A stretch of DNA of 54,761 bases. It comes from a virus. A model generated the notes under the pieces. It had not been told where the DNA came from, did not search any database, and worked only from the letters and a program-made list of their open reading frames with translations. The stretch covers positions 1-54,761 of IMG/VR virus record IMGVR_UViG_3300020578_000101; one strand, written 5' to 3'. The translations under genes and the position numbers were made by a program. Below are positions 14,026 to 53,389 of this stretch, piece after piece. The first letter of the stretch is position 1, and each line of letters starts with the position of its first letter.

Positions 14026-14655
14026 TCAATGTTCCGCGGGTCGCTCCAATACTGGCATGGCGTTCACGTCGATTGTGGGTTGAACAGTGTGACCAACTGT
14101 TCGCTGTGGCAGTCCGATGTTGAATGTCACGTTCGTTTTTGGCGCCGCCACCTGGATATCGCCCCACTTGGTCGGCTTGAGTTTCGAGGCTATCCACTTC
14201 CTGGTATCTACGCGCAGACGTGCCGCCTGGATCTCCTCCAGGGTGCCGCTGGCGGCTTCGTCGGCAATGTCGACCATCTCGTCCGCCAGAGTGTCCGCCC
14301 GGTCGTCGTGCGCGCGCGCGTAGCGCTTGTGGAAATCACCGCGTTCTCTCAACCACCGGTATATCGTCGTCAGGTCTCTTCCCGTCGCTCTGCTGTAACT
14401 CCGCAGGGATTTGCCCTCTGCGATCCACGCACAGATCCGGTCTCCCTCTTCGTCGGTGTACTCAGAAGGTCTTCCCCGTCCCTGGCTTACCGTCCCTACC
14501 GCTCTCTCTCCCTCTACTGTCTCTTCCCCTACAGCAGTCACTACTGTTGCCGCTGTCAGCGCTGTTGGGGGCGCGCGATTTTCTGCTTCCCTTACCCGCT
14601 GGAGTTCTTCTTCCTGGATGCGGTCTTTCAGGGCGCGGCGTTCTTCCCTGGTCAT
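14026..14655 (-). CDS. terS: Terminase small subunit
   Basis: This 209-residue protein has a basic helical N-terminus, a low-complexity Thr/Val/Ala segment, then a helix-turn-helix around residues 60-105 (GRPSEYTDEEGDRICAWI, GKSLRSYSRATGRDLTTI, YRWLRE). The HTH followed by KRYARAHDDRADTLADEM and WIASKLKPTKWGD is typical of Terminase_1/phage terminase small subunit-like proteins. It recognises phage DNA and delivers it to TerL. It starts in an ATGA overlap with the preceding gene. The distance from terL, with lysis genes in between, is unusual. Confidence 0.82.
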   Translation of the reverse strand: MTREERRALKDRIQEEELQRVREAENRAPPTALTAATVVTAVGEETVEGERAVGTVSQGRGRPSEYTDEEGDRICAWIAEGKSLRSYSRATGRDLTTIYRWLRERGDFHKRYARAHDDRADTLADEMVDIADEAASGTLEEIQAARLRVDTRKWIASKLKPTKWGDIQVAAPKTNVTFNIGLPQRTVGHTVQPTIDVNAMPVLERPAEH

Positions 14656-15297: not shown

Positions 15298-15313
15298 AAT
15301 ACCGAATGGTATT
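15298..15313. promoter_or_regulatory. Repressor operator in the divergent control region
   Basis: AATACC-GAAT-GGTATT is a perfect 6-bp inverted repeat. TTGACA begins inside it, at 15312-15317, as a possible rightward -35, although no good -10 follows at 16-18 bp. It lies between the leftward late genes (first ATG 15222) and the rightward AAA+/VWA operon (first ATG 15643). It is one member of a family of six similar sites in this genome. Confidence 0.65.
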
Positions 15314-15642
15314 GACAAAAGAAAATAAAGGGAGGAACATCACAACTGTTCCGGTTGTTCTTTAGTGCTTCTGCCCTCTCCCGGAACGTGACCGAGGGCT
15401 GGGTTCCAGGTGACCGAGCAATGTCCTGGTTGGCGAGAGTCCTGCTGGTCGGGGCAAGACGCCGGAGGCGCGGTGCTAATCCGACCGTAAAGTGCGCTCG
15501 ACCAGCCCGCCGGGAATCCCCGCGCCCCAGTCAATTCTGTCTCTGACTGTTTCAGGGTTTCAGTCCCTGGCCCCCGAAAGTCTGCGGGGTCCAGGAGCGG
15601 ACGCCCTGTCCACCAGTTTTTAACCACCAGGAGGTAATCACC
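15314..15642 (+). other. Structured leader of the AAA+/VWA operon
   Basis: About 330 bases without a convincing gene. Visible structure includes a hairpin at 15566-15595 (CCTGG-c-CCCCG stem against CGGGG-t-CCAGG, loop of eight bases) and two copies of GTGACCGAG, the first near 15387 and the second near 15411. It could be an untranslated leader controlling the small peptide at 15643, or contain a small RNA. No known riboswitch is recognised. Confidence 0.4.
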
Positions 15643-15726
15643 ATGTTTGCAATCGCGATCGTTCTCTCTGCGTTAATCACCGCCACGCTCGTTGTTGGCG
15701 GTTCTGTCGCCGTTCCCATTGAGTAA
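15643..15726 (+). CDS. 27-residue hydrophobic peptide
   Basis: An ORF too short for most gene callers, preceded by a perfect AGGAGGT 7 bases before ATG. The product begins MFAIAIVLSALITATLVV and is a single membrane segment ending in a short VPIE tail. The strong ribosome site, the near-copy of the same leader (CCAGGAGG-AATCACC) before the AAA+ gene, and the 9-base gap to the next ORF support real translation. It could be a small membrane peptide or a leader peptide. Confidence 0.55.
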   Translation: MFAIAIVLSALITATLVVGGSVAVPIE

Positions 15727-15735
15727 GGAGCCGTT

Positions 15736-16005
15736 ATGCCCACCATCACCGTTCGAGTTCGCGACGTCTACGGCGTCCCGACCATTTACCCGGTCTGCAA
15801 CGCCGCCAAGTCGTTCGCGGCAATCGCTGGCACCAAGTCGCTGACGCTCAAGGCTTTGCAGGGCGTCGTTGCTCTCGGCTACACCATCGTAGTCGACGGC
15901 GGTAACTACGCGATCGGTCCCACCATCCACGGCAGTCTTTGCCTTGTCGAGGCTGACACGCCTCACTGCTGTGATCCCCGCTTCGAAACTTTCTGGAGTA
16001 CCTAA
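15736..16005 (+). CDS. Small protein upstream of AAA+/VWA genes
   Basis: This 89-residue protein begins MPTITVRVRDVYGVPTIYP. It has a beta-rich pattern, with TLKALQGVVALGYTIVVDGG, and ends with paired cysteines in HCCDPRF. AAGGAG lies upstream. The stop overlaps the next ATG as TAATG. No family is recognised; its conserved position would identify it as part of the CobS/CobT-like operon. Confidence 0.5.
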   Translation: MPTITVRVRDVYGVPTIYPVCNAAKSFAAIAGTKSLTLKALQGVVALGYTIVVDGGNYAIGPTIHGSLCLVEADTPHCCDPRFETFWST

Positions 16006-16172
16006 TGAACGCCGCCCGAGCAATCACCCTTGAACTGCGCCGCCGTGAGCGACGTCGCTTTTTTATTGCCTTTCGACACTACCTTTTGGTAGTAGTCGGA
16101 TACTTTTTCGCTCTCTTTGGCTTGTATGTCTTTTGCGTCCTGTGGCTGTCCCTGGACGTCCTTTTCGCTTAA
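16005..16172 (+). CDS. 55-residue single-pass membrane protein
   Basis: The ORF starts in a TAATG overlap and ends 15 bases before the AAA+ ATG. The product has an Arg-rich N-terminus (LELRRRERRRFF) followed by one long membrane segment (LLVVVGYFFALFGLYVF), which predicts a cytoplasmic N-terminus. With the 27-residue peptide, it gives this operon two tiny membrane proteins, which might anchor the AAA+/VWA complex at the inner membrane. That link is inference. Confidence 0.55.
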   Translation: MNAARAITLELRRRERRRFFIAFRHYLLVVVGYFFALFGLYVFCVLWLSLDVLFA

Positions 16173-16187
16173 CCAGGAGGAATCACC

Positions 16188-17411
16188 ATGTCATACGCTC
16201 ATCTGACCAAGCCGCAGTTGGTCGACATCGTCAAGCGATGCACCGGCTCTGCTGGCGACTACGCTCGCAAAACCAAGCAGGAGTACGAGGCGCAGGTTGC
16301 CAGTCTGCCTGTCGAGGACGTTCAGTCCGCCGCCCAGGCTCTCGGCATCCCGCTGATCTCTGGCGTCTGGTCTGGCGCCGCTACCGCTCCGGCTCCCGTT
16401 GTTGCCGATCCGGTCCCTGACGTCCAGGTCGTCGCGTCCAAAACACTGGGCGAGATTTTCGGCATCCGCGGCAAGTTTGCCAAGGAAGCCGTCGACGTCT
16501 GGAATGACCCAGCCGCCCCGGTCCTCGACCCGATCTACAAGTTCGACGGCGAACAGTTGTTCTCCGCTGTGACCGCACTCAAGCGCGGTCGCAATGTCTG
16601 GCTTGCAGGTCCTGCCGGTACCGGTAAAACCGAGTTCGTCAAAAACCTGTGCGCCGGTCTCGGTCGCGCTTTTGTCCGCGTTTCCTTTGACTCCAGTGCT
16701 GAAAAGTACGAGTTCATTGGCGGCGAGCGCGTCAAAAACGGCACCACCGTCTACCAGCGCGGCGTCGTTCTCCGCGGTTTTGTTCGTCCTGGTGCGGTGA
16801 TCCTGCTTGACGAAGTGTCTTTTGCCCGTCCCGAGTACCTGTCGGCGCTTCACGCCGCTCTTGAGCCCGAGGGCGTTGTGACCGTCCCGGAAACTGGCGA
16901 GGTCGTTCGCAAGGCTCCTGGCGTCGTGTTCTTTGCCGCCGACAACTCCAACGGTCGAGGTGACTACACCGGCATGTACGTTGGCATTCGCGAGCAAAAT
17001 GTCGCGTTTGTTAACCGCTTTGCCCGGACGATTGAGTTCAAATACCTGGAGCCAGCCGCCGAGGTCAAAGTCATCACCGCTCGCTCCGGCTGTAAGGAGT
17101 CCCTGGCGGCGCTTCTGGAGTCGTTCATTTGCGTCTGCCGCGAGGCTGGCGACCAAGCCCAGTTGGACCACGTCCCAACCCTTCGCGAGTTGTTCTACCT
17201 CGCCGAGGCGTTGACCGACGGGGTGCCTTACCGGCTCGCGTTCGAGCAGTGCATGGTCAACCGTGCCTCGCCCGAGTCGCGTGAGGTGTTGCAACAACTG
17301 TGGCGCGCCAACGTTTCTGACGACGCCATCAGGTTTGCCCTGGAAGGCATCACTCCTGCCAGTTCAGTTGTTCCTGCTGTTCAATCCACTGAGGAGACTG
17401 TCAATGTCTAA
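16188..17411 (+). CDS. MoxR/CobS-like AAA+ ATPase
   Basis: This 407-residue protein has a small N-terminal domain (residues 1-70; starts MSYAHLTKPQLVDIVKRC), a linker, then an AAA+ module. Walker A is GPAGTGKT at 141-148 and Walker B is VILLDEVSF with D208-E209. The segments GGERVKNGTTVYQRGVVLR and AADNSNGRGDYTGMY match the CobS/MoxR class. CobS forms the ATPase ring of aerobic cobaltochelatase together with CobT and CobN; here a CobT-like gene follows at once with an 8-base overlap, but no CobN is present. It therefore more likely forms a general MoxR-VWA remodelling machine acting on phage or host proteins. Strong ribosome site AGGAGG. Confidence 0.85.
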   Translation: MSYAHLTKPQLVDIVKRCTGSAGDYARKTKQEYEAQVASLPVEDVQSAAQALGIPLISGVWSGAATAPAPVVADPVPDVQVVASKTLGEIFGIRGKFAKEAVDVWNDPAAPVLDPIYKFDGEQLFSAVTALKRGRNVWLAGPAGTGKTEFVKNLCAGLGRAFVRVSFDSSAEKYEFIGGERVKNGTTVYQRGVVLRGFVRPGAVILLDEVSFARPEYLSALHAALEPEGVVTVPETGEVVRKAPGVVFFAADNSNGRGDYTGMYVGIREQNVAFVNRFARTIEFKYLEPAAEVKVITARSGCKESLAALLESFICVCREAGDQAQLDHVPTLRELFYLAEALTDGVPYRLAFEQCMVNRASPESREVLQQLWRANVSDDAIRFALEGITPASSVVPAVQSTEETVNV

Positions 17412-19488
17412 CCGAGTCCAGGGCGCGCGCCTTAAAGCCGCCGCCTCTACCCATGCCGCCAAGCAGTTGGCGGCGTTGGGTGTTCCCATGTACAACCGAG
17501 CAGGGGGGCGCGCCAAGTTCGTTGGCGACAAGGCTTATGCCTACTGGAGCCTCAACAGCGAGGGTAAGGTCTCGTCGTACGGCATCAACTACCCGGCGAT
17601 GCCCGACAACGCCTTAGTTTCGCGCCGCGAGGCTGACCTGATCAGTGCCTACACGTTGCATGAAATTGGGCATATTGCGTTCACCGACAATCAGGCGCCC
17701 GGTGGTCAAAAGCCCCTGGTCTTCCACTTGTGGAACGGTATCGAGGACGCCCGTATTGAGCGCGCCGTGATCGCCTCTGGCAATGCCAAGGGCTCCCGCT
17801 CCGCGTTCAAGCGCCTCATGTCCAAGTTCACTGCCACGGCGGATGGCTCTGGCTTCAACCCTAGCAACATCAACTCCGCGCCGTTCGCTCTGGCTTTGGT
17901 CTGCCGCGCCGCGCTTGGTGACGGCAATGGGTACGCCAAAACGCTTCTTGCCCGTATTCCTGAACCCAAGCGCGCGCTGTATGCCGCCGCTTGCGAGGGC
18001 GCCAAAGGTCTAACCCTTGACCGCCAAGGCTCCTGGGGCGCTCTTGCCCTGGCGCGTGAGTTCCTGGATGGCTGGCTTGCAATTGAGCCCGACGCCCTCA
18101 AGGCATCTGAGCCGGTTCACCAACCTGCTGGCGCGCCAAGCGCCGAGGAACAGCAGGAACAGCAGTCCGATGCGGACGACGCTGGCTCTGCTCCCGCCTG
18201 GGGTGAGGAGGACGAGGGCGAGGACCAGGATGACGCTGATGCCAGCAACAGCGGCAACAGCAGTTTTGACTGGGACGGCGAGTCCGACGAGGACAGCAAC
18301 GAGGACGGCGACGAGGACAGTGACGGCGTCAGCGCCAGCGACCTCCGGGCTGACATGGAGGACGCCGCCGAGGAGGTTGTTAGTGGTCGCGACGACTCGG
18401 TCTTGTTTGACCAGTCTGACGACGACTCGGACGAGGGCGGCGAGGGCTCCGGCGGTTACGGTAGCGAGCCTTACGGTAGCGAGCCTTTCAGCGACGAGTC
18501 GGACACGTTCGACGAAACTCGCGTTGTTGCCGCCGAGCCAAACGTTGACGACCTGTTCGCCAGCATCCTGGCGCGCACCAAGGCTCCGGTCGACCTCCCG
18601 ATCATGGGCAAGGTCACTCGGTCTGTGATCCGCAACTGGTCCAAGGTTGTTGCGTTGGACGAGTCTGGTCAGCGTCGCCACTACCGGAAGTTCCACAAGT
18701 CTGCGCTTCCCGCTCTCAAGGCTCAGTTGTACCGGATTCTCAAGGCACCTGAGCGTTGCGGCTGGGACGGCGGCGCACTTGGCGGTCGGTTCGACGGCAA
18801 GCGCACGTCACGCATGATGGCTGGCAGCGAGTCGGTGTTCAAGCGCCGCTGGGTTAGCGAGGGCATCAACACCGCTGTGTCAGTGGTCATCGACATGTCC
18901 GGTAGCATGAAAGGCGAGCCGATCAAGGAGTCGGTTGACCTTGGCTGGACCATTGCCGAGGCGGCTGAATCTGCCGGTTGCGAGGTCGAGGTTCTTGGCT
19001 TCACCACCAAGTACGCCTCGTACCATGACGGCGGCCACACCATTGGCGGCGAATGGGTTGACGGCACCAACGCCCGTCACTCGGCACCGGCTACGCTGAT
19101 CGTTGCCAAGCGCTGGCAGGACAAGTGCGCCAACAGCGCCCAGTACTTCAGCATCATGAAGCGCGCCGCGGACGGCGGTACCCCCGATTACTCGGCAATT
19201 CGCACAGTCGCCGAACAGTTGTCGACGCACAGCGCCCAGCGCAAGTTGGTCATCGTCATCACTGACGGTTGCGGCGAGATCGGTTCGATGGCTGAGTTGA
19301 CCAAGTCTGCTTACGACTTGTACGGCGTCGACGTGATCGGTTTTGGTATCGGTATCTCCGAACACCACTTCAAACGGGCTTACGCCCTGGGTTCTGTGGT
19401 GAGCGGGTTTCTTTCCGACCTACACAAAACCTGCCTCAAGTCTGTCGCCGACCAGTTAGCACGGCGCGACTCCCGCAGGGTTGCGTGA
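17404..19488 (+). CDS. CobT-like VWA-domain protein
   Basis: This protein has 694 residues; ATG 17404 with GAGGAG upstream is chosen over an upstream in-frame start inside the AAA+ gene. The N-terminal part has HEIGH at 86-90, an HExxH-like motif seen in CobT-like proteins. Residues about 240-375 are a very acidic Asp/Glu/Ser linker. The C-terminal VWA domain has the metal-site motif D497-M-S-G-S (VIDMSGSM) and a later ITDGCGE strand. This is the full architecture of CobT. It would pair with the AAA+ ATPase as substrate-binding or adaptor subunit. The HExxH motif may also mean peptidase activity, which is untested. Confidence 0.82.
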   Translation: MSNRVQGARLKAAASTHAAKQLAALGVPMYNRAGGRAKFVGDKAYAYWSLNSEGKVSSYGINYPAMPDNALVSRREADLISAYTLHEIGHIAFTDNQAPGGQKPLVFHLWNGIEDARIERAVIASGNAKGSRSAFKRLMSKFTATADGSGFNPSNINSAPFALALVCRAALGDGNGYAKTLLARIPEPKRALYAAACEGAKGLTLDRQGSWGALALAREFLDGWLAIEPDALKASEPVHQPAGAPSAEEQQEQQSDADDAGSAPAWGEEDEGEDQDDADASNSGNSSFDWDGESDEDSNEDGDEDSDGVSASDLRADMEDAAEEVVSGRDDSVLFDQSDDDSDEGGEGSGGYGSEPYGSEPFSDESDTFDETRVVAAEPNVDDLFASILARTKAPVDLPIMGKVTRSVIRNWSKVVALDESGQRRHYRKFHKSALPALKAQLYRILKAPERCGWDGGALGGRFDGKRTSRMMAGSESVFKRRWVSEGINTAVSVVIDMSGSMKGEPIKESVDLGWTIAEAAESAGCEVEVLGFTTKYASYHDGGHTIGGEWVDGTNARHSAPATLIVAKRWQDKCANSAQYFSIMKRAADGGTPDYSAIRTVAEQLSTHSAQRKLVIVITDGCGEIGSMAELTKSAYDLYGVDVIGFGIGISEHHFKRAYALGSVVSGFLSDLHKTCLKSVADQLARRDSRRVA

Positions 19489-19493
19489 TAACA

Positions 19494-19509
19494 GGGGGGT
19501 TCGCCCCCC
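19494..19509 (+). promoter_or_regulatory. UUCG hairpin between VWA and HD genes
   Basis: GGGGGG-TTCG-CCCCCC is a perfect 6-bp stem with the extra-stable UUCG loop, placed 5 bases after the VWA stop and 12 bases before the HD-gene start. No U-run follows, so it is not a standard terminator. It may stabilise the upstream mRNA or tune translation of the HD gene. Confidence 0.6.
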
Positions 19510-19521
19510 AGAAAGGATCGT

Positions 19522-20043
19522 ATGTGGAAAAAAGTTGAACTCGAAAATGCCGACACCAGTGACGTCTTGATTGATCGGGCAATTAGGTTCGCAACCGCGG
19601 CGCATGATGGTATGTTCAGGGCTGACGGCGTCACCCCCTACATCAACCACCCCATTGCTGTCGCCAACATCCTGCGCGTCCTTGGTGAGCCAGCGAATAC
19701 AGTTGTTGCCGCTGTTCTCCATGACGTTATTGAGGACTGCGGGGTTGACCGCGAGTACTTGGCTCACAAGTTTGGGATCTGGGTCGCACTGACCGTCAGC
19801 GAGGTTACGTTCCCGGCTGGCGTCCCGAACAGGAGAGCCGCGATCATTGCGGCAATCCCGAACATGAGCCCTGCGGCTATCAAAATCAAAGTCGTTGACG
19901 CCATTGTCAACCTCGCCGACCTGCCCAACTCGGGCTGGGATCGTGGCAAGGCTGAACGTTATCGGGCTCACCTGGAGCGGGTCATTGCCGTTGGTGTTAA
20001 CACGCTCTGGAACTTGGCTTGGCGCCCGAAAAGCGAGGAGTAA
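19522..20043 (+). CDS. SpoT/MESH1-type HD hydrolase
   Basis: This 173-residue protein is a stand-alone HD domain of the RelA/SpoT hydrolase class. The expected residues are present: R22 in DRAIRFATAAHDG, H43 in YINHPIAVA, H67-D68 and E71-D72 in AAVLHDVIEDC, and D126 and N130 in VVDAIVNLADLP. The order and spacing match MESH1-type enzymes, which remove the pyrophosphate from (p)ppGpp (MESH1 also acts on NADPH). The protein lacks synthetase and regulatory domains. It is the last gene of the rightward operon and could blunt the host stringent response. Activity is inferred from residues only. Confidence 0.8.
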   Translation: MWKKVELENADTSDVLIDRAIRFATAAHDGMFRADGVTPYINHPIAVANILRVLGEPANTVVAAVLHDVIEDCGVDREYLAHKFGIWVALTVSEVTFPAGVPNRRAAIIAAIPNMSPAAIKIKVVDAIVNLADLPNSGWDRGKAERYRAHLERVIAVGVNTLWNLAWRPKSEE

Positions 20044-20070
20044 AAAATGCCGGGGGTGAGGTTCCCCCGG
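20042..20070 (-). terminator. Terminator for the leftward early operon
   Basis: On the minus strand CCGGGGG-AACCTCA-CCCCCGG is followed by CA and six T. It ends transcripts from the replication operon, whose last gene stops at 20346. The same 7-bp stem lies just after the HD-gene stop, so it may also mark the 3' end of the converging rightward transcript, although no U-run follows in that direction. Confidence 0.7.
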
Positions 20071-20345
20071 CTTAAGGTTGCTTCCTGCCCCCAGTGACCG
20101 TCAGGTCGACTGGGTAAGGGCACGACGTACGTGTCCTTACCGAGACGTCCTGTCGAACGGTATTGCCGGTTGATATTGTTGAATGAATTTATTTCTGGTG
20201 ATCCAGAAATTTAGAGGACACTTGTCCCTTAGACCGGCGCGCAGGTAGTTATAGTTGTCTTGCACCTATGCCAAGGACTTTACACTAGTTTGGTTTACAC
20301 AACAACTGTTGGGCGAAAATAGTTATTAGGGAAAACCCCGATATA
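20071..20345. other. Structured AT-rich stretch between convergent operons
   Basis: No gene is supported here. Two further inverted repeats are present: 20114-20140 (GTAAGG-g-CACG, loop ACGTA, CGTG-t-CCTTAC) and 20191-20210 (ATTTCTGG-TGAT-CCAGAAAT, perfect). A GGTATT half-site occurs at 20159-20164 and the recurrent decamer AACAACTGTT at 20301. This may be the 3' region of both transcripts, or encode a small RNA. Confidence 0.45.
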
Positions 20346-20894
20346 TCAAAGCCCCTCGCTCATTTGCATATCAACCTTCCTTCTTGCGGATCGGTACGCG
20401 TCTTCGGCGATCTCTTTCGCCAGTTCGATTCGCTTGTCCCACCAGTCCTGGGATGCATTGGCACCCAGGCGCATCACCTCTTTGCGCCACCGCCACGTCG
20501 GGATGAATATCCCGGTCCCGTTGCAGTGGTTGCACTGTCCCTTGCGCATCGGCTTCCACGTTCCGGAGTAGTCGATCAGCCTCTCTCCCGACCCATTGCA
20601 TGAACGGCAGATCCTGATCAGCCACTCTCGCAAAGCCTGGGTCGCCGCCAACTGCGCGTGGTCGTAACTCAACCCCAACCTCTTTCGTCCGCATGCCTTC
20701 TTAAGAACACGGGACAACTCCGCAATCGCTGGGTTCAGGTCGCTGACGTAACCGCCCGAGGCTACGTGTTGCAACTTCACCCCGAGTCGTGACGCAAACG
20801 CAAGCGCCGCTACCAAGTCCGCATCAAAATGAACCTCGTCGTTGCGCAAGTTCCCGCTGTTGAGAGCGGCTCCAATCCGTTCATTACTTGTCAT
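20346..20894 (-). CDS. DnaJ-type zinc-finger protein, possible Q-like antiterminator
   Basis: This 182-residue protein has a helical N-terminus, then two DnaJ-type zinc knuckles: C96-R-S-C99-N-G-S-G and C121-N-H-C124-N-G-T-G, about 22 residues apart. It ends with a long basic helix. Phage Q-type antitermination proteins can carry this paired CxxCxGxG finger, and this gene is the last of the early leftward operon, the position of Q in lambda-like layouts. Late genes here are preceded or interrupted by strong terminators, which fits. A J-domain-less zinc-binding protein of other function is possible. Confidence 0.5.
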   Translation of the reverse strand: MTSNERIGAALNSGNLRNDEVHFDADLVAALAFASRLGVKLQHVASGGYVSDLNPAIAELSRVLKKACGRKRLGLSYDHAQLAATQALREWLIRICRSCNGSGERLIDYSGTWKPMRKGQCNHCNGTGIFIPTWRWRKEVMRLGANASQDWWDKRIELAKEIAEDAYRSARRKVDMQMSEGL

Positions 20895-30795: not shown

Positions 30796-33700
30796 TTACC
30801 TCTCGTCAGTGCCCTGGTAGAACTGGCGGTTGAAGTCGACCTGCAACTTCCGCATCTTCTCAGCCACGTTCTTGCGCATCTCAAACTTGGTCGCCCGGTC
30901 TAGCGTGTCGTTCGTCTGGATCTTGATGTCTTCCATCCGCAATGCCGCCAGAGCCTTCTTGTAGTTGTCGGTCGCGCCACCGAGCATGGCAATGCGCCTG
31001 TTCTCAGCAACCCGATCCAGCATGGAGTCTGTGGCTTTGTCGCGGATCTCGGAAGATACCTTCCACTCCTCCAGGGCAACCTCTGCTTTCTTGACGTTCT
31101 CGTAAAAAGCGGAGGCGTCCGCACGTCCGGTCTCGTTCTTGTATAGGGCGCGGAGGATTGGGATTTTGTTCTGCTCCAAGGGAGCGTCAGCACCAACGTT
31201 GGCAAACAGGTCAACAGTCTGAACAACATCCTTAACAAATGTTCCTAAACCGCCGGTCACGAATGTCGTGATGTAGTTCAGTGACTCGGGCGATACGTCA
31301 ACCTTTCCTGCCCGAGCCGGTGACCCGCCAGTAACTTCGTTCATCCAGGAGGTGAAGTTCTGAAACACACTGTCTCGACTGTTGTTCCAGTAGCGCTCGC
31401 TGTCCGGCTTGATCCCACTGAAGTCTGCTGGCATGAGCGGCATACCATCTTCGCGCTGACCAGACGCCAGCACATAGATCGGATCTACAATCGTTGGGGA
31501 CACGAACGTCGCCATATTCTCCGCGGCACCAAGCGGGGAGAAGTGGATGAAGAACGCATCCCGCAAGAACGCGGACACCTTCCATGGGTCAATGCCACGC
31601 TCCAGATCCTTGATCGCATACCCAAGCGAAACGAAGAAACCCAAACCGTAAGGCAGCGGGACCGTGTACGTGTCGCCGTCCGCCCCCATGAACATCAGGT
31701 TCTTGAGTTTCTGGGTGCGGTAGGACGGCTTATCCCAATACGGCTCATCGTCATCACCGGTTGCCTGAGCCGCCATCATTGCCACCATGTAACCAAGCCC
31801 CACCAAACCGGATGCCGCTACTGCACCGCGCTTGCTGAACACAGCCTTGCCGGTACGGACAGCGCCCTGAACAGCGGGGTTGAAGAACAGGTAGAGAGAC
31901 GACATCACAGGGGTCCAGCGACCACGGCGATTAAAGTTGACCGTGATCTCTTTGGCGATGTTGGTCGCCTCGATCCTTGACTTGCCGGACTCAAGAGCCG
32001 CCTTGTACGCCGCCACCCTTGCGGCACCTTCGATCGCACCGTTGACGTCCAGGATCATGTCTTCCGCTGCCTTGAGGTAGCGCATGACTAGACGGTGGTA
32101 CGACAGCGGGTTTCCAATGGACGCTTGTGCGTTGCGGAAAGCGGCGATGACTTCAGCCTGACGGTCTTCCAATTGTTTGAGATCGAGGAATCCGGTCTTG
32201 CCGCCGTCAGCCTTGTACTGGTCGTAGATCTGTTTGAGGCTCCCGGTGCCAGCCCAGTTGCCGTTACGCTCTGCGCGCAGGATTGTGTAAGCCGCCCCCG
32301 GCAATGTCTTGAGGATCTTCAGGGACGAACCAAACCCTTGCTCGACACCGCTGTTGATCAGGGCTGTCTGCGTGTCACGGATCGAGTTGATCAGGATGAA
32401 CGCGGGGGACAGCGCTGTCCACAGTTTGCCGAGTGTTCGGTTGATGCCGGACCACATGCCAAAGAAATGCTTGAACCCGTCTGACGTTCCGGACAAGACA
32501 CTGCTCATCTCCAGGTCACGGCGGGTCTCGGCGTCTTCGATAACCATGTGGTACACCTTGCCGCCAACACGGACTGGCAGAGTGTTCTGGTCAGACTGAA
32601 TGCCAAGCCGATAACGGACCTCTTCGATCGGGTTCTTAAAAAATGCCCGAGTCATAACGGGTCGGTTGACCTGCCAGAGTTTCGAGTCTCTGTTATCCAG
32701 GATGAACTTCAGCCATGCCTTGCGAACGTTGTTGCGCTCAACGGCGACAATAGCGTCTTCGTAGTCCGTGAGGATGTTCTCAATGATTGCGCCAGCCCTG
32801 GTGCTACGACCGAGACGACGCTTGCTGAACTCTTGAGCAAGGTCGAACCTGCCGGAGTTGGTCGTCGAGCCACTGCTATCCACCTGTTCAAACGTCTTCA
32901 GGGGGACGTAGTACTTGTAGGTGGCGTTCCATGCATCAACGTTGTCCTGGCTGACGATGTCTCCATTGACTAGCACCCGCTGTGTGAGGCGGGTGATTGC
33001 CTGGACCTGATCGGCGTACTGCTTGGTCTTGGCAAACTTCACCGGGTCTTGGCGCAGATCCTTAAGGATGTCCGCCGCCTCCTGGTTTGTCATGCCAGAT
33101 CCGCCGTCGGGGTACGTGGCATTGATAGACGCAACTTGGGCGTTGGCTTCCGGTGCGTGAGTGGCGTACATATACAAAGCAACGTCATCAAAACTGACGC
33201 GGTCTTTTGCCGCCTTGTCCAACAGTGGTTGCCAGATCTTCTTACGGAAGTCGTCCAGGCGTGAGCCACCTCGACCGTACATCCGGTGCATGGCGCTCTC
33301 AATATCGGTTGCGTCGGTAAGGATGCCGCCCTGTTCAGCGACAGCCTTCTGCACTTGAGCCGCACGACCCACCTCATTCTGGATTCCGCGAACTAGTCCG
33401 CGGAGCCGACCAAAGCCTGGAAGCGCAAACCGGTTCCCGCGGACGGGCGGGATGGTTCTGCTGAACAGGACATAAGTTGGGTTCTGCTCGCGCCACTTCG
33501 TAGCGATGCGAATGAATCCGTCGTAGTCCTTTTCAATGAACTCATCCGCGTCTTTGTAACCGGCGAGTTCGGATTGCTCCTGAACCCAATCCATTTGGCG
33601 TTGCATGTCTTCAGCCAGGGTCGGAGTTTGATTACGACTGAAGCGCGATCCACCGCGAATACGCTGGATGGGGATGTCGACCCTCTCAAACCTAAATGCG

Positions 33701-36700
33701 CTCTCTCCATACCTCTTGACAATACCTTCTGGAAGAAGTACATTTGGATTGGAGGTGCCAGTTCTCAGGCGAGGCAAGGAGAGCCGAAGACCCTGAGCCA
33801 ACTGCGCACCTCGTTCCTTATTGAAGTACAGCGCGTTCTGCGCAAGGTCTCTGTTCAGTGGCGACATCTGAGTGCCGCCGGATGGAATCGTCTGGTTCTT
33901 TGGGAGAGCGGTCGTGATCTCGGTGACCTGAAGTTCCTCGAATCTCTCACCCTCAACGACGGTCATGCTTGCCTTCTCGGAAATCGTGGCGATCACTGGG
34001 TACCCATCAACCTTCGCGCTGGTAATGATCACCAATCCCTTGCCGCCGGTGCTTGAGCGCTCGGAGGATTTCAGAATCGCAACCGGGTCAGCCAGCAACT
34101 GAGGAAGCGCATACAACTGGTCGACAGAGAGCGGGATGCGGGGAGCAACTTCCCGACCGCCAATCGTGCGATTTTCTATCACCTTGCCAACGCGCTCTGG
34201 CGTGACAATCTTGACGACCTTGTCTTTAGTGATGACGAGCGGCAGACGTTGAACGCCGACTGCCTGGAGAACGGGGGGTACGAATCCGAGTACTACACCA
34301 TCGGGCGCATCCGGCGCGCCCTCAACCATCTTGTTTAGGTTGGCTCGGGAGAACTGGGCTCTTGTTTGTCCGCCTGTTGTGTCGTTTGGTCCACGGTTCC
34401 AGGAGATGGTTCCGTCACCGGCGACGTCGACCCGCGATGGAGGGTACCGACGAACGAGTTCTCCTGCTTCTTGTAGTCTTCCTCTGTCGCGTAGCGAATT
34501 GAGATAGGCTTGACCATCAGAGTTTTCCTTCCAATCGTTTTTCGTGGATTTCAGTACTACTTGCTTTACCACGACGTCTTGTAATTGTACATTCAAGTCA
34601 GACGCTACGGTGTTTAATGCATCGTAAATTTCAGCGACCTGAGTTTGCCTCCAGTTGCCAGCAAGATTCAACAGCCGGATACCGGGCACTCCATCTAAAA
34701 TAATCTGCTGGAACCCAGGTGCAAGCGGCTCGCCGTTCTTGTCTTTCGGACCGTACTCCAGGAACTTGCTGAAGAATGCCGTCGACTGTTCAACAGTTGT
34801 TAGACCATCAGCAAGAATGTCGACCGCCATGTTCTTGCCGGACGCAAGCGCTCGGGTATTGATAATCTCTGTCTGCTGGAACGCATAGCCGACCATGTCC
34901 ATGAAGTCAGCAATAGCCTCGGGGCTGGCAACCGCATCGATTTGGATTGCGCCCTCGATCCATTGCAGGTAGGCACCGACACCGTTGACGTTCTGAACGA
35001 TGTTCACACCGGCAAGATTTGCCAAGTAATCGATCTCGCGCTGGGCAACTTCTACCGGTATTTCTTTCCCGACAAGTTTGCCAGCCAGGACAGAGTCCGG
35101 ACCGGGAGCCAAGCCAATGGAAATGCGGCGCGTGTTCATGCCGATAATGTCGCGCACAAACTCCGCCTTGACGCCCATGGCTTTCTGCATAGTGACCCAG
35201 CCGACAGCCTGTACTTCACGCGCAGTCCAGCCGCCGCCATCAAAGTTGGTTTCGTTTAAGTACTCGACGACGTCGTTGTAGAAGTCGATGCCGTATTCGT
35301 ACTGAGCCTCGCCATCCGTCGTGCGGTCGCTGTCCAATTGTGCAACAGCATCCTCGCCAAACTCTTTGCGGACGTACTCAAAGACCTTCGGGTCTACAAA
35401 GCCGATGTCTCGCTGTGCCCAGACGTCGATCGCTGCTGGTTGACGACCGCGTGGATCGTCACGAACAACTGTTCTGGTTGTTCGACCGAGTTCGCTGTCC
35501 AGGAAGTCAAGCAACTTGGCACCGACCCCCTCTTGTGGGACCCTACCTTGGAGGACATCGATCAATGCTTGCTGGTTCAGACCGGCTTTCTTGACTTCAG
35601 CCTTGCCAGCAGCCATGTCAGCGGCACGGAGTACGTCAGTGAACCCCTTGCTCGGGCTGGCGCGCTTTTGCGACAGCAGCCACGCCAGCGCGTACTGAGC
35701 GACGTTATCCTTAAAGATGGGGCGGAACGCGTTGTCCAGTTGGCGGTACCACGTGCGGGAGTCTTTCAACTCCTCGGTGGTCATCAGGTCGTTGACCCGA
35801 CCGATCCAGTCCTGGATGGTGATCTTGCCAACAGCGAAGGTCTTGCCTTCTTTGGCAAAGACCACGCGATCATTAACTGGAGCGCCGATGTTTTCCTTGC
35901 GGTTCTCACGGCGGCGTACGCGCCCCTCAGCCTCTGCTTCGTCAACCGCTGACAACAGGGGGTTGTCACGATCATTTTGCTGGTTTACAATATCATTTAG
36001 TGTGCCTACAGGAGTTACATCCGTGCCAATACCAAATTCATTCCCAGCAGGAACAGAGTTCGCTGAAGTTAATGGCGTACCAGTTACGTTCCGACCCGGA
36101 GATGCGTTTCCTTTTCGCTGGAACGAAGCCAAGGCGGTGCCGTTCAGCATTATGTTGCTACTCTCTGACGGTGTACCGCTCAAAGAAGCAGAGTTCCGTG
36201 AACGATTCGCCTCATTGAACGCAACCGAGTAAGCAGAGGATTGTTGCTCAGTAAGTTTTTGTATTTTCTCCTGCGCGGTACGAGACTCTTCGTCGGTCAG
36301 TAACCCAACATTCAGTTTCCGAGTTAACTCTTCCGACTCTTTGTACCACTTGTGCGCCACGTCTTTGGCGTCAATCATTTCTTGAACGTTCATCTGCAAC
36401 TCAACGCGCATGCCGTCAACAGCGACGCCGCGGAACATCACGTCACGGTAGCCGCCAACCAAGGGCTCTGCACCCTCAGCCCAGAGGTTTCGCTTGACAA
36501 ACGAACCTTCGAACATTGATTGCGCCTGTGCAATTGCGCCAGGGATTTGGTCAATGTTGTCGAGAACCAGGGTTGCGCGCACGACGTCGTTCAGTTCGTC
36601 GACATTGTTGCCGTAATCAAAGTACACCTTTGAGTAGGCGCGGCTGACCTTCTTGATCGGACCCATCTTTACTTTGCCGCCAGCCTGTTGAGCAAGACGC

Positions 36701-39700
36701 TTGAGCATCTGCTCGAACTTGGCGTTAACAGTCGGAGCCTTTTTCTCGACAAAATCTACTACCTTATCGTATGCACCTGCTATCTCAGGGTATTGTTTAC
36801 GGGCAACAGAACTCAGTGGTTTTCCGTCTGCAATATCAGACACGACCTGATCCGCAGTCTTGCGTGAGAACTGGGTCGGCGCTGTGTCCTGTTGAGTTGG
36901 TTGTACGTCATCCTGTTGGTCGCGAGTCTGTTGCATTTGGCGACCAATGCGCATTGCCTGGGTTATTGGGTCAGCCTCCGGCTCGTACCCGGTAATGGTG
37001 TAGTCGGGGTCATAGTCCCCTGGGCGCATGTAGTCCTGTTCCCAGCCGCGGGGCTTGTAGTTGCCCTGGTCAGGGTAGACGCCAGAACTGCTCGCCTCAC
37101 GGCGCACCTCAGCGGCAGTCTTCTCCAGCACCGGCTCGAAGCCAAAAATGTCCATGGCTTCTGGTGTGTACCAGCGATCACTGATCGGCTCCCAGATATT
37201 GTTGGTCTCCGGGTCACGGACAACCGAGTGCCAAATGCGGGACACAGGGTTTGCCTTCGCAACGCCAAGAACCTGGGTGAAGCGGTTGCCAAAATCCATG
37301 ACGACCTTTACCACGCTTAGTTCGTGGCAACGCCCCTTGCGTTTGTCAGAGGCTGGGTATTTTTGGTTGATAGCGTACGCTTCATCTCGGCTGACAATGG
37401 GGTCTGTTTCCGACTTGCCGCTACTCCGATTAAGCGCGCGCGCAAATTGTCCGGGCTGGGACGGGACGTTAGTTGTTTGGGTGTCTGTTGCACTTGTCTG
37501 CTCCTGTTGAATCCACTGTTGGAACGCCTGAGTAGCCGCCTCTCGGACAGCAATCAAGTCCTTGCGGTCCTTAACAAACTGCGGACCCTGCATTACAGCC
37601 AGCAGTTTTTTGATGATGTCTTGGATGGTGTTGATGAAGTCCTGCGCAAACGTGCGGTCGGCAGAGGAATTAAAGACATCGATCCAGAACTGAGGATCAA
37701 TGGCTTGCTCGCCGATCATCTCGGCAACCAGTTCGGATTCGAAGAGGGCTTCGTCTAGCACACGACCGGACTCTCGTTGCATCGCACCAGAAAGGCGATT
37801 GCGCAAGGCGGTCTGTGCTTCTGCCGGAATACGCTCACGGGCAAGCGCCACCAGTTGCGCGTAGATCTGGGGGTACTTGGTCTCCAGGACGTGGGTGAGT
37901 TCATGACCCAGCGTGTTCAGGAACTGAGGATTGCTGGCGTCGAGCAGGATCGCATTGCGACCACCGACCCGCATGCCATTAAAGGCGCCGAACGAGCGAC
38001 CGCGGTTGGTCGTGATCTGCTGGTTCTCACCGAAGTTCACCCATACGACGTCCGTACCAAAGGCTTGCTTGATCGCTTTGGCAATGGTGGACATGCGCTT
38101 GTTGGCGGGAGCCTCCTGAATCTGGACGGACTCCCCCCCTGTCAGGTTGAATTCCTGGTTGATCTCCTGGACCGCCGACTGGAGTATCGGGTTCGTAGCG
38201 CCCGGTACTGGAGCCTGGAATGTTCCATCAACCTCGACCAAGCGTGAGCCAGCCACCACCGACTCTCGGTAGTTGACGGCAAACTGCCGAAGTTGCTGGG
38301 GGTCCATTTTCAATTTGGCGCTCAGGTACTGGGTCAGACCATTGATATCCTTCAGAATCTCTGGACGACCAGAGAACGCCTGACGGATGCGGCTACCCAA
38401 CTGGAACAGTTGTTTGTGCAGGGAGTCTTCGAAGACGACGAAACGACTGCCGTCATTGCCCAGGTTGACTTGGATCTGGCGGTCCGGCGGAACGCTGGGG
38501 GGCTCTGGCGTTTCTTCGACCATCTGGCTTGCCGCCAGTTGAGCGGTCGCCTCTGCATCCACTTCCGACAGTTGTGCGTCAAGGTCTTTAGATGTGACGG
38601 TACCTTCCGCAACCAAGGTCGGAACTACCTGGCTCATTATTTGAGCCTGGTTTTCGGTCGTCTCCACAGGCTCGGCTACTAGCACCGCTGTTGCAGTATC
38701 CGCGGGTTGGGCGGATTCAGGAGTTATAGGCGCTTGATTTTCCTGGTTTGTGCCGGTAGTGGTTGCTACGGGTGTGGGTGCCGCAGGATCAACAGATGAT
38801 CCTGTGAGTATCGAATCAACAGTTGTTGTTGGCTGTTGCACTGTTGTTCCTGGCTGTTTGGCAGAGGGTACGGGGGCGACAGGATCAACCTTTTCGTTGA
38901 TGTCGGCGGTCGCAGAGTCTGCCATCCGGTTAAAACGGCGGCTTGTAGTAACAGCCTCAGCAGGTGCAGAAACTGTTTCCCCCACCGCTTCGAGCAGGAC
39001 ATTGGTCGGATCGATATCTTTGCCAGCAGCCAGTGATCCACCGGCTTCGCCACCTGCACCAAGAGCCGCCTGTCGACCAGTTTCCTTTGCAACGGTCTTT
39101 ACCGCGGTCCTGGTTGCGCCCTTTTCAACAGCGTCAACAACTGTGTCCAGTGCCCGACCGGCTGTTTTCATCGAGACCGCATCAGCCAGACCAATGACGC
39201 TAGACTTAAGAGCGGCAGTCTTCCAGGCTTCTTCGTGGCTCATCCCCTCGGCACGGTTACCGGCGTACTCGTTGCCAAACTCCACGTAACCGGAGGTTGC
39301 ACCACCAGCCGCTGCTGCGGCAATTGGATTCCTGGTCGCGAGGAACACGGCGATGGCTGATGCCATGGAAGCAAGGGTCGACGGACCGGACGTTAAGGCT
39401 AGGTCAACAACTGACCCTGGGTCTCTAACGATTGCTCCACCAATTTCGCTTGCGGCTTCAGCCCAACCTCGATCGGGCTTGCCAGCACCAAACATTTGCT
39501 GGGACTCTGGGCGAGTACGGTCCGACTTAAGAATCTCTTCGTTCTTGCGGGACAGTTCCGCACTTTCTTGTGCAAGGCGAGCAAAGTTCTGTTCGTATTC
39601 ACGCTTCTTGGCTTGCAGTTCTGGACTGGCGGCAATCTGCTCGGGCGTATACGAATTATTGAACTTCTCGATAAATTCCCCGTACTCAGACATCTTCATG

Positions 39701-40065
39701 CCGTTAACGGACGACAGAATGTTGTTCCATCCACGCTCAAGTGCCGAGCCAAGATACTTTGGCTCACGGCTTAACCGGTCCCAGAAACCACCAGGCTTAT
39801 CTGTGACGACCGGCGTCTCCGCGGTTGGCTCTTTATTGATAGCGGCAGTCCGGGTAGGCTGGGCTTGAATTGGCGCTGGCGCTGTGTCTTCAAATCGGAA
39901 GATGCTTTCCAGGGACTTATTAGGTACAGCCTTATCTTGGATAGCGGCGGCTCGGCGCTGTGTAGCCTCACCGCTCTCGACACGACGCCGTTCCTGCTCG
40001 ACTGGGTCATCAACCAACCGAGCGGCAGGGTCGAACGAGAATACATGCGCGAGATCGTTACGCAT
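30796..40065 (-). CDS. Giant polyvalent virion protein (3,089 residues)
   Basis: This protein takes up 17% of the genome. Residues about 215-275 are hydrophobic and Ala/Gly-rich; 385-480 are a Pro/Thr linker. HELTH at 721-725 marks a zinc-metalloprotease-like domain. C913 (RCHELS), H946 (RIWHSVV) and D963 (WEPISDRW) form a papain/transglutaminase-like Cys-His-Asp set. Residues about 1100-1245 resemble RelA/SpoT nucleotidyltransferases (NDVVRATLVLD, GGYRDVMF, VELQMNVQEM, AHKWY). Residues about 1955-2040 resemble MuF C-terminal-type RNase domains. The C-terminal 550 residues match the LPD38-like domain of large polyvalent proteins. Such proteins are carried in the head and injected with DNA. 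The domain calls vary in strength: HELTH and LPD38-like are best. Confidence 0.75.
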   Translation of the reverse strand: MRNDLAHVFSFDPAARLVDDPVEQERRRVESGEATQRRAAAIQDKAVPNKSLESIFRFEDTAPAPIQAQPTRTAAINKEPTAETPVVTDKPGGFWDRLSREPKYLGSALERGWNNILSSVNGMKMSEYGEFIEKFNNSYTPEQIAASPELQAKKREYEQNFARLAQESAELSRKNEEILKSDRTRPESQQMFGAGKPDRGWAEAASEIGGAIVRDPGSVVDLALTSGPSTLASMASAIAVFLATRNPIAAAAAGGATSGYVEFGNEYAGNRAEGMSHEEAWKTAALKSSVIGLADAVSMKTAGRALDTVVDAVEKGATRTAVKTVAKETGRQAALGAGGEAGGSLAAGKDIDPTNVLLEAVGETVSAPAEAVTTSRRFNRMADSATADINEKVDPVAPVPSAKQPGTTVQQPTTTVDSILTGSSVDPAAPTPVATTTGTNQENQAPITPESAQPADTATAVLVAEPVETTENQAQIMSQVVPTLVAEGTVTSKDLDAQLSEVDAEATAQLAASQMVEETPEPPSVPPDRQIQVNLGNDGSRFVVFEDSLHKQLFQLGSRIRQAFSGRPEILKDINGLTQYLSAKLKMDPQQLRQFAVNYRESVVAGSRLVEVDGTFQAPVPGATNPILQSAVQEINQEFNLTGGESVQIQEAPANKRMSTIAKAIKQAFGTDVVWVNFGENQQITTNRGRSFGAFNGMRVGGRNAILLDASNPQFLNTLGHELTHVLETKYPQIYAQLVALARERIPAEAQTALRNRLSGAMQRESGRVLDEALFESELVAEMIGEQAIDPQFWIDVFNSSADRTFAQDFINTIQDIIKKLLAVMQGPQFVKDRKDLIAVREAATQAFQQWIQQEQTSATDTQTTNVPSQPGQFARALNRSSGKSETDPIVSRDEAYAINQKYPASDKRKGRCHELSVVKVVMDFGNRFTQVLGVAKANPVSRIWHSVVRDPETNNIWEPISDRWYTPEAMDIFGFEPVLEKTAAEVRREASSSGVYPDQGNYKPRGWEQDYMRPGDYDPDYTITGYEPEADPITQAMRIGRQMQQTRDQQDDVQPTQQDTAPTQFSRKTADQVVSDIADGKPLSSVARKQYPEIAGAYDKVVDFVEKKAPTVNAKFEQMLKRLAQQAGGKVKMGPIKKVSRAYSKVYFDYGNNVDELNDVVRATLVLDNIDQIPGAIAQAQSMFEGSFVKRNLWAEGAEPLVGGYRDVMFRGVAVDGMRVELQMNVQEMIDAKDVAHKWYKESEELTRKLNVGLLTDEESRTAQEKIQKLTEQQSSAYSVAFNEANRSRNSASLSGTPSESSNIMLNGTALASFQRKGNASPGRNVTGTPLTSANSVPAGNEFGIGTDVTPVGTLNDIVNQQNDRDNPLLSAVDEAEAEGRVRRRENRKENIGAPVNDRVVFAKEGKTFAVGKITIQDWIGRVNDLMTTEELKDSRTWYRQLDNAFRPIFKDNVAQYALAWLLSQKRASPSKGFTDVLRAADMAAGKAEVKKAGLNQQALIDVLQGRVPQEGVGAKLLDFLDSELGRTTRTVVRDDPRGRQPAAIDVWAQRDIGFVDPKVFEYVRKEFGEDAVAQLDSDRTTDGEAQYEYGIDFYNDVVEYLNETNFDGGGWTAREVQAVGWVTMQKAMGVKAEFVRDIIGMNTRRISIGLAPGPDSVLAGKLVGKEIPVEVAQREIDYLANLAGVNIVQNVNGVGAYLQWIEGAIQIDAVASPEAIADFMDMVGYAFQQTEIINTRALASGKNMAVDILADGLTTVEQSTAFFSKFLEYGPKDKNGEPLAPGFQQIILDGVPGIRLLNLAGNWRQTQVAEIYDALNTVASDLNVQLQDVVVKQVVLKSTKNDWKENSDGQAYLNSLRDRGRLQEAGELVRRYPPSRVDVAGDGTISWNRGPNDTTGGQTRAQFSRANLNKMVEGAPDAPDGVVLGFVPPVLQAVGVQRLPLVITKDKVVKIVTPERVGKVIENRTIGGREVAPRIPLSVDQLYALPQLLADPVAILKSSERSSTGGKGLVIITSAKVDGYPVIATISEKASMTVVEGERFEELQVTEITTALPKNQTIPSGGTQMSPLNRDLAQNALYFNKERGAQLAQGLRLSLPRLRTGTSNPNVLLPEGIVKRYGESAFRFERVDIPIQRIRGGSRFSRNQTPTLAEDMQRQMDWVQEQSELAGYKDADEFIEKDYDGFIRIATKWREQNPTYVLFSRTIPPVRGNRFALPGFGRLRGLVRGIQNEVGRAAQVQKAVAEQGGILTDATDIESAMHRMYGRGGSRLDDFRKKIWQPLLDKAAKDRVSFDDVALYMYATHAPEANAQVASINATYPDGGSGMTNQEAADILKDLRQDPVKFAKTKQYADQVQAITRLTQRVLVNGDIVSQDNVDAWNATYKYYVPLKTFEQVDSSGSTTNSGRFDLAQEFSKRRLGRSTRAGAIIENILTDYEDAIVAVERNNVRKAWLKFILDNRDSKLWQVNRPVMTRAFFKNPIEEVRYRLGIQSDQNTLPVRVGGKVYHMVIEDAETRRDLEMSSVLSGTSDGFKHFFGMWSGINRTLGKLWTALSPAFILINSIRDTQTALINSGVEQGFGSSLKILKTLPGAAYTILRAERNGNWAGTGSLKQIYDQYKADGGKTGFLDLKQLEDRQAEVIAAFRNAQASIGNPLSYHRLVMRYLKAAEDMILDVNGAIEGAARVAAYKAALESGKSRIEATNIAKEITVNFNRRGRWTPVMSSLYLFFNPAVQGAVRTGKAVFSKRGAVAASGLVGLGYMVAMMAAQATGDDDEPYWDKPSYRTQKLKNLMFMGADGDTYTVPLPYGLGFFVSLGYAIKDLERGIDPWKVSAFLRDAFFIHFSPLGAAENMATFVSPTIVDPIYVLASGQREDGMPLMPADFSGIKPDSERYWNNSRDSVFQNFTSWMNEVTGGSPARAGKVDVSPESLNYITTFVTGGLGTFVKDVVQTVDLFANVGADAPLEQNKIPILRALYKNETGRADASAFYENVKKAEVALEEWKVSSEIRDKATDSMLDRVAENRRIAMLGGATDNYKKALAALRMEDIKIQTNDTLDRATKFEMRKNVAEKMRKLQVDFNRQFYQGTDER

Positions 40066-51270: not shown

Positions 51271-51279
51271 GCTGAATCC

Positions 51280-52203
51280 TTATGCCGTAAAGGTGCCGGA
51301 GGATGTAAAGGTGTGGTAGGTATATCCATCCGAGGAAGTTACTGTGCCGCCTGTACCAACCTGAGCGCCCGGGTAACGAATAATTACAATTCCTGAACCC
51401 CCGTTTCCACCAACTTGTGAGGCACCGCCCCCGCTTGCTGTTCCACCAGTTCCACCGCCGCCGCCGCCTGTGTTTTCGCCGCCGTTAAAACCTTTTTGTG
51501 TGCCATTCCCGCCGCCACCACCGCCGCCACCTGACCCGCCGGTTGAAAAAGTTGCGGAGTCATAAATTCCGCCGCCACCGCCTCCTGCGTAAGATGTTCC
51601 TAAAGACTTCCAATTTATACCTACTCCACCATTTCCCGCTACACTTGTTGTTGCGTTTCCACCTGCGGAAGTTGCACCGCCGCCGCCACCACCAGGATAT
51701 TTATTTGTATACGCGGCAGTGCCACCAGCGTTTCCTTGACCAGACGTGCCTGTTCCCGGGTATCCTGTGGCTGAACTACTATTTCCTGATCCACCAGCAC
51801 CAGAACCACCGTTTCTTTCTGCTCCGTTGTAAACGCTATTGCTGTTTGGTGCTGAACCGCCACCTACGGCAGATGTGCCATGGAAAGCAAAAGTGGTATT
51901 CGATCCAGAAGTCGATGATTTTCCATCGTTTTGTGCAGCACCTCCGGTTCCACCGCCTCCAATTGTTACAGAATATGCGGTTCCAGGCGTAACTGTTCCG
52001 CTACTGTCAATTGCTCCACCAGCGCCGCCACCCCCAGTAGCGGCATTGTTAAAACCGGCGCCGCCGCCACCGCCCCCACCGGCAACAATTAAATACTCAA
52101 TAGTGTAAGTAACACTCGGCCAATTAGAACCCATAATGGCGTTCCGTTGGTCTTTTAAAGACCAGATACCGCTAGCACCTGTTGTGCTTGGAAACTGTGC
52201 CAT
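51280..52203 (-). CDS. Glycine-rich tail adhesin, paralogue
   Basis: This 307-residue protein has a short N-terminus with GIWSLKDQRNAIMGSNWP, then YTIEYLIVAGGGGGGGAG, Gly-rich loops, and the same C-terminal tag (GSGIVIIRYPG, TVTSSDGYTYHTFTSSGTFT) as the 420-residue neighbour. The shaft differs while the transition and tail are conserved, pointing to domain shuffling. Its first base overlaps the stop of the preceding gene. Confidence 0.75.
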   Translation of the reverse strand: MAQFPSTTGASGIWSLKDQRNAIMGSNWPSVTYTIEYLIVAGGGGGGGAGFNNAATGGGGAGGAIDSSGTVTPGTAYSVTIGGGGTGGAAQNDGKSSTSGSNTTFAFHGTSAVGGGSAPNSNSVYNGAERNGGSGAGGSGNSSSATGYPGTGTSGQGNAGGTAAYTNKYPGGGGGGATSAGGNATTSVAGNGGVGINWKSLGTSYAGGGGGGIYDSATFSTGGSGGGGGGGGNGTQKGFNGGENTGGGGGGTGGTASGGGASQVGGNGGSGIVIIRYPGAQVGTGGTVTSSDGYTYHTFTSSGTFTA

Positions 52204-52556: not shown

Positions 52557-52559
52557 GAT

Positions 52560-52955: not shown

Positions 52956-52957
52956 GG

Positions 52958-53365: not shown

Positions 53366-53389
53366 GTGTTTACTCCTAAAAAATTAGGT

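What the first reader, a model, noticed from the sequence alone, without database searches (positions are those of the whole stretch)
15643..20043. Phage operon combining CobS-like AAA+, CobT-like VWA, a MESH1-type HD hydrolase and two tiny membrane proteins
The AAA+ and VWA genes are complete, overlap by 8 bases and have intact Walker and MIDAS motifs, yet there is no CobN or other cobalamin gene. The operon adds an HD hydrolase with all catalytic residues, plus peptides of 27 and 55 residues, each with one membrane segment. It has its own operator-linked control region. Together they look like a membrane-associated remodelling machine plus alarmone control, perhaps for host takeover, defence or anti-defence. 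I do not know a described system with this exact set.
Basis: partly seen in the sequence, partly recalled or inferred. Interest (0 to 1): 0.78.

Follow-up and report, generated by a model that had tools for sequence, protein, structure and literature searches.

The report
Phage AAA+/VWA/zinc-peptidase operon with alarmone hydrolase
A temperate phage carries a repressor-controlled operon for a protein-remodelling motor whose relatives are usually labelled as vitamin-B12 enzymes, but whose partner protein keeps an intact zinc-protease-like active site; a signal-molecule hydrolase is added only in one branch of these phages.

Summary
The operon is real and conserved. In 44 of 44 distinct viral relatives the AAA+ gene is followed by the VWA component. 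All 21 genuine CobT proteins examined lack HExxH, and the record has no CobN, so this is not a cobaltochelatase. It is a MoxR AAA+/VWA machine of the metallopeptidase-fused kind noted in jumbo phages. The HD gene is monophyletic but confined to one clade (5 of 38 lineages). An operator, AATACCnnnnGGTATT, lies upstream of the operon and around the repressor, also in relatives, so expression is probably lytic. Best reading: an early ATP-driven remodelling or proteolysis machine for takeover or counter-defence, with HD reversing toxSAS/stringent-type responses. Target and activity are unproven. New variant of a known kind.

The parts
15298..15317 (+). Operator AATACCGAATGGTATT (15298-15313) overlapping a perfect -35 hexamer TTGACA (15312-15317), upstream of the operon
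   Evidence: Same palindrome at 24595, 25284, 25403 and 26115 (repressor, replication and right-operon control regions); upstream of the cassette also in L003, L006, L007, L020 and L095. The -10 of the window copy is weak (GAACAT, 3/6); L003 and L007 have TAAGAT and TGTAAT.
15643..15726 (+). 27-aa single-membrane-segment peptide
   Evidence: Strong Shine-Dalgarno (AGGAGG), max KD 2.46; similar 28-35 aa hydrophobic peptides before AAA+ in L003, L006, L095, L011, L013, L021, L101
15736..16005 (+). 89-aa conserved protein of unknown function (gp89)
   Evidence: Homologues in L003-L009, L020, L095, L099 and in unrelated phages
16005..16172 (+). 55-aa arginine-rich protein with one membrane segment, directly upstream of AAA+
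   Evidence: Counterparts with an RRREQYR-like stretch plus a membrane segment directly upstream of AAA+ in L003, L006, L007, L008
16188..17411 (+). AAA+ ATPase, CobS/midasin/NorQ-like
   Evidence: Pfam AAA_5 1.4e-15; phrog_249 4e-51; profile matches Midasin 2e-40, CobS 1e-29, NorQ 1e-16 in PDB sequences
17404..19488 (+). 694-aa protein: N-terminal zinc-peptidase-like domain (about residues 1-230; H86-E87-x-x-H90, E114), acidic linker, C-terminal VWA domain (D497, S499, S501, T593, D621)
   Evidence: Invariant motifs; domain model pLDDT 94.9; CobT_C 6.8e-10; NorQD fold matches
19522..20043 (+). 173-aa HD-type small alarmone hydrolase (MESH1/SAH-like)
   Evidence: HD_4 1.5e-11; PDB Rel and MESH1 matches 1e-13 to 1e-15; active-site residues kept
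20049..20071 (-). GC-rich hairpin downstream of HD; terminator-like for the minus strand (followed by T run), a possible end of the operon
   Evidence: Consensus scan only

Best explanation
The core (AAA+ and VWA-peptidase genes) encodes a MoxR-type machine. By analogy with NorQD, an AAA+ hexamer is plugged by the VWA domain, which grips a target through its MIDAS. A long acidic linker tethers a zincin-type metallopeptidase-like domain that cleaves, or at least binds, what the motor pulls apart. The genes are off in the lysogen (repressor operator overlapping the -35) and on early in lytic growth, when the machine dismantles host protein complexes that hinder phage establishment or replication. 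The clade-specific HD enzyme hydrolyses (p)ppGpp/(p)ppApp or pyrophosphorylated tRNA and so counters stringent or toxSAS-type responses. The tiny membrane proteins may tether the machine. Shown: gene set, motifs, conservation, conserved operator. Inferred: complex formation, catalysis, timing, target.
For: AAA+ followed by peptidase and VWA in 44/44 distinct viral loci, 26 as three separate genes. Zinc motif invariant in 42 homologues but absent from 21/21 genuine CobT. Confident domain model whose nearest structures are mostly HExxH gluzincins. VWA protein best matches NorQD. Operator upstream of the cassette in five lineages and also around the repressor or right operon. In other phages the pair sits beside DNA polymerase, primase, ligase or clamp genes and on an IncC plasmid near ssb and lambda exonuclease. 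The SSU5 phage hydrolase reverses toxSAS action (PMC11559606, PMC9712102).
Against: No activity, target or complex has been measured. Structural Z scores for the peptidase domain are below 8 and Foldseek found no significant PDB match. One phage homologue (nickie) showed no HExxH. HD is absent from most lineages. The -10 element of the window's promoter is weak. No relevant PADLOC family matches.
Confidence: 0.5

Rival explanations
1. Virion-assembly chaperone/protease, as proposed for the metallopeptidase-fused MoxR-vWA pair of jumbo phages and reported for the tail of Acidianus two-tailed virus.
For: Same architecture and that proposal in PMC7824862.
Against: Opposite strand to the structural genes and a repressor-type operator rather than late control. 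Homologues of the VWA protein occur on 1075 plasmids, 773 predicted conjugative, which make no virion. In other phages the pair often neighbours replication genes.
Confidence: 0.15
2. Auxiliary cobaltochelatase: viral CobST borrows the host CobN to raise cobalamin output.
For: AAA+ resembles CobS and the VWA domain resembles CobT; this is the published reading for viral cobST (PMC8651126).
Against: The N-terminal CobT family PF06213 is not matched; 0 of 21 genuine CobT carry the HExxH that is invariant here; no CobN in the record; NorQ and midasin are as close as or closer than CobS to parts of the machine.
Confidence: 0.07
3. Metal-insertion chaperone like NorQD, perhaps for an iron enzyme such as ribonucleotide reductase; the HExxH site would bind or hand over metal rather than cleave.
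For: NorQD is the closest structural analogue and inserts iron (PMC9976466, PMC13036017). On two plasmids the gene lies near yfaE, an RNR maintenance gene, and in Syn33 next to nrdC.
Against: No such target gene was recognised in the cassette; the conserved HExxH...ED..E pattern is that of a peptidase site.
Confidence: 0.13
4. Lysogenic moron: a superinfection-exclusion or defence module expressed from the prophage.
For: Opposite-strand cassette between lysis/terminase and Q regions, with membrane peptides; homologues on plasmids.
Against: Repressor operator overlaps the -35 of its promoter and recurs in relatives; no PADLOC match.
Confidence: 0.12

Closest known systems
MoxR AAA+ / metallopeptidase-vWA pair of group 2.2 jumbo phages (PMC7824862)
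   Same: AAA+ gene next to a vWA protein with an N-terminal metallopeptidase domain
   Different: Here a 55-kb temperate podovirus with a repressor operator, membrane peptides and, in one clade, an alarmone hydrolase; the peptidase is a separate gene in distant relatives. Direct homology to ASV44728/ASV44729 was not tested.
Viral 'CobS/CobT' pairs (phrog_249, phrog_1576; cyanophages, CRP-810, SSU5, haloarchaeal viruses; PMC8651126, PMC11288001)
   Same: Same AAA+ and VWA families; sampled members (SSU5, CRP-810, Mae-Yong1326-1, Syn33, RHph_Y2_11) also carry HExxH
   Different: Published as cobalamin genes; the data here argue for a peptidase-type machine
NorQ/NorD (MoxR AAA+/VWA; PMC9976466, PMC13036017)
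   Same: AAA+ plus a protein with N-terminal domain, flexible linker and C-terminal VWA; top fold match
   Different: NorD works in iron insertion into cNOR; the viral N-terminal domain has a zinc-peptidase motif
Cobaltochelatase CobN/CobS/CobT
   Same: CobS-like ATPase and CobT-like VWA domain; weak profile alignment of the N-terminal domains
   Different: No CobN; PF06213 not matched; genuine CobT lacks HExxH
Small alarmone hydrolases: MESH1 and phage SSU5 PaSpo
   Same: HD_4 fold family, same active-site residues; 34% identity over 123 aa to PaSpo
   Different: In SSU5 the hydrolase lies about 40 kb from cobST; substrate of the present enzyme unknown

Membership tests
MoxR AAA+/VWA machines | AAA+ of the CobS/NorQ/midasin type with intact Walker A and B | tested here: met
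MoxR AAA+/VWA machines | Linked VWA protein with intact MIDAS | tested here: met
MoxR AAA+/VWA machines | Physical AAA+/VWA complex and ATP-driven remodelling | not testable with these tools
   needs biochemistry or cryo-EM
Cobaltochelatase CobNST | CobT N-terminal family PF06213 | tested here: not met
   No match in the record; 41 of 41 genomes of the control order match
Cobaltochelatase CobNST | CobN subunit encoded nearby | tested here: not met
   PF02514 absent from the record; host unknown
HExxH gluzincin metallopeptidase | HExxH plus a downstream glutamate on a second helix | tested here: met
   H86, E87, H90, E114, D115, E119 invariant in 42 sequences; HExxH in 44/44 loci
HExxH gluzincin metallopeptidase | Gluzincin fold | tested here: inconclusive
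   Most neighbours are gluzincins but Z is at most 6.4; no significant Foldseek PDB hit
HExxH gluzincin metallopeptidase | Zinc binding and peptide cleavage | not testable with these tools
   needs assay
Small alarmone hydrolase (MESH1/SAH) | RSH-type HD catalytic residues and no synthetase domain | tested here: met
Small alarmone hydrolase (MESH1/SAH) | Hydrolysis of (p)ppGpp or (p)ppApp | not testable with these tools
   needs enzyme assay
Known anti-phage defence systems (PADLOC) | Match to a defence-family model beyond generic ATPase signal | tested here: not met
   Only weak generic ATPase matches for AAA+, none for the others

The most novel reading that the evidence does not exclude
The widespread viral and plasmid 'CobST' pair is not a vitamin-B12 gene set but an ATP-driven metalloprotease that mobile elements use early to clear host protein complexes, and cellular CobT is a relative that has lost the zinc site.
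Probability: 0.35. Interest if true: 0.8.

Novelty: new variant of a known kind. Interest (0 to 1): 0.56.

Why it matters
cobS and cobT are counted as auxiliary vitamin-B12 genes in many marine and freshwater viruses. If the partner is a working metalloprotease, that ecological reading is wrong for this family, and a common AAA+-powered protease of phages and conjugative plasmids has been overlooked. The zinc motif, the split three-gene form and the operator give clear, testable mutants. The HD gene ties one branch to alarmone or toxSAS counter-defence.

Tried and rejected
Cobaltochelatase membership: rejected. AAA+ N-terminal region as a SAP/Rho-N-like DNA-binding domain: no Pfam support. Own toxin-antitoxin pair with a RelA/SpoT synthetase: none in the record. 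PADLOC defence match: none relevant. Near DNA relatives among phage records: none. Foldseek PDB search with the peptidase-domain model gave no significant match, and the profile of that domain hit nothing convincing in PDB sequences. First attempts at the CobT motif count and at printing the HD alignment failed for script reasons and were repeated. HD and gp89 as obligate partners of AAA/VWA: rejected, since unrelated phages L042, L055 and L062 carry both without it and most AAA/VWA loci lack HD. Genome-contig search found no close prophage, only a distant pair in a Devosia MAG, so the host stays unknown.

Full report
Observation. The operon runs 15643-20043 on the plus strand, between the small terminase subunit (minus, 14026-14655) and a Q-like antiterminator (minus, 20346-20894). 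The record is a 54,761-bp IMG/VR virus with portal-type, terminase, integrase and repressor genes, so a temperate podovirus-like phage.

Distribution. No near DNA relative is in the phage collection, but IMG/VR holds many: 18 loci with 65-100% identical AAA+ in a close search and 236 with a profile search, of which 80 were fetched. Close relatives place the cassette in the same slot, between small terminase and Q-like gene, where both flanks are present. After removing duplicates, 44 distinct AAA+ genes had at least 2.6 kb downstream. All 44 are followed by the peptidase and VWA regions, 18 as a fusion and 26 as two separate genes. Loci found with AAA+ patterns were chosen without reference to HExxH. 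HD was present in 5 of 38 lineages with at least 4.2 kb downstream. The HD proteins of this clade form one group (support 0.97) among 48 viral hydrolases. So HD is a stable but clade-restricted addition, and AAA-peptidase-VWA is the core. Small peptides with one membrane segment precede AAA+ in most relatives examined, with a different sequence in another clade.

The peptidase-like domain. HExGHxxxT and ED...E are invariant in 42 sequences down to about 22% identity. A model of residues 1-235 has pLDDT 94.9 and pTM 0.91. Structural neighbours after re-alignment are mainly HExxH gluzincins (DUF885 proteins, dipeptidyl-peptidase III, aureolysin, leukotriene A4 hydrolase, M32 carboxypeptidases, thimet oligopeptidase, ACE2), but Z is at most 6.4, so fold membership is suggestive only. 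BFVD matches are viral 'CobT' or VWA proteins, including haloarchaeal viruses and a separate 355-aa protein of HHTV-2. Genuine CobT from 21 alphaproteobacterial genomes has no HExxH, yet its N-terminus aligns weakly with this domain (hhalign E 5e-5 for a single comparison, probability 67%), with the EQARVE stretch of CobT under the NGIEDARIE helix. This suggests a shared fold in which CobT lacks the active site; the direction of change was not tested. The cyanophage Syn33 gene annotated 'peptidase' near cobS carries HEVGH and a MIDAS. One paper calls that annotation mistaken (PMC8651126); the present data favour the annotation. The metallopeptidase-vWA fusion itself was noted for jumbo phages (PMC7824862).

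The motor. AAA+ is closest to midasin, CobS and NorQ among PDB sequences. The full VWA-protein model (mean pLDDT 60; much of the VWA part near 80 or above) best matches NorQD complexes. In NorQD the VWA finger enters the AAA+ pore, the MIDAS is needed for the target, and a linker joins an N-terminal domain (PMC9976466, PMC13036017). The mechanism proposed here transfers that geometry by analogy.

Control. The palindrome AATACCnnnnGGTATT, with up to two mismatches, occurs at 15298, 24595, 25284, 25403 and 26115. It recurs upstream of the cassette and also in the repressor or right-operon region in L003, L006, L020 and L095, and upstream of the cassette in L007. It overlaps a -35 hexamer (TTGACA or TTGTCA) in the cassette copies of the window, L003, L006 and L007 and in the right-operon copies; it does not in the cassette copies of L020 and L095. 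The -10 elements are better in L003 and L007 than in the window. This predicts repression in the lysogen and early lytic expression; it is inference until measured.

The hydrolase. It matches Rel/SpoT and MESH1 hydrolase domains, keeps the catalytic residues, and is 34% identical over 123 aa to the SSU5 phage hydrolase, which reverses toxSAS toxicity (PMC11559606, PMC9712102). No RelA/SpoT synthetase is encoded in the record. The substrate is unknown.

Function. Against virion assembly: the strand, the operator, replication-gene neighbours in other phages, and VWA-protein homologues on 1075 plasmids, 773 predicted conjugative, including an IncC plasmid near ssb and lambda exonuclease with HEAAH kept. 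Against cobaltochelatase. A metal-insertion chaperone remains possible. The best-supported reading is an early ATP-driven remodelling and probably proteolytic machine with unknown targets.

Limits. All evidence is sequence or predicted structure. CobT was sampled in one bacterial order. Locus searches favour relatives carrying the chosen peptides. Several loci are overlapping fetches of one contig, so tallies use distinct AAA+ sequences. The host is unknown.

Noticed in passing
16078-16093: A second, imperfect operator-like palindrome (two mismatches) inside the 55-aa gene about 110 bp before AAA+; similar sites lie about 100-200 bp before AAA+ in L007, L008 and L020.
   Followed up: partly
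30796-40065: A 3089-aa minus-strand giant protein with MuF_C and LPD38 domains, a likely large polyvalent protein.
   Followed up: no
50008-54679: Three nearby genes all match PHROG 2295, suggesting duplicated structural genes.
   Followed up: no
20346-20894: Q-like antiterminator with a DnaJ-type CXXCXGXG zinc motif.
   Followed up: no
L042, L055, L062: Unrelated podoviruses carry gp89 and the HD gene in a plus-strand island without AAA/VWA; a 318-aa gene (looks like DUF932, from memory) lies between them.
   Followed up: partly
L221:5915-12710; L220:2897-5808: On an IncC and a Pseudoalteromonas plasmid the VWA-peptidase gene lies near lambda exonuclease and yfaE, an RNR maintenance gene, hinting at a DNA-metabolism link.
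   Followed up: partly
L079:9230-13025: A Devosia MAG holds a genuine CobT without HExxH and, elsewhere, a phage-like AAA/VWA pair with HEAGH.
   Followed up: partly
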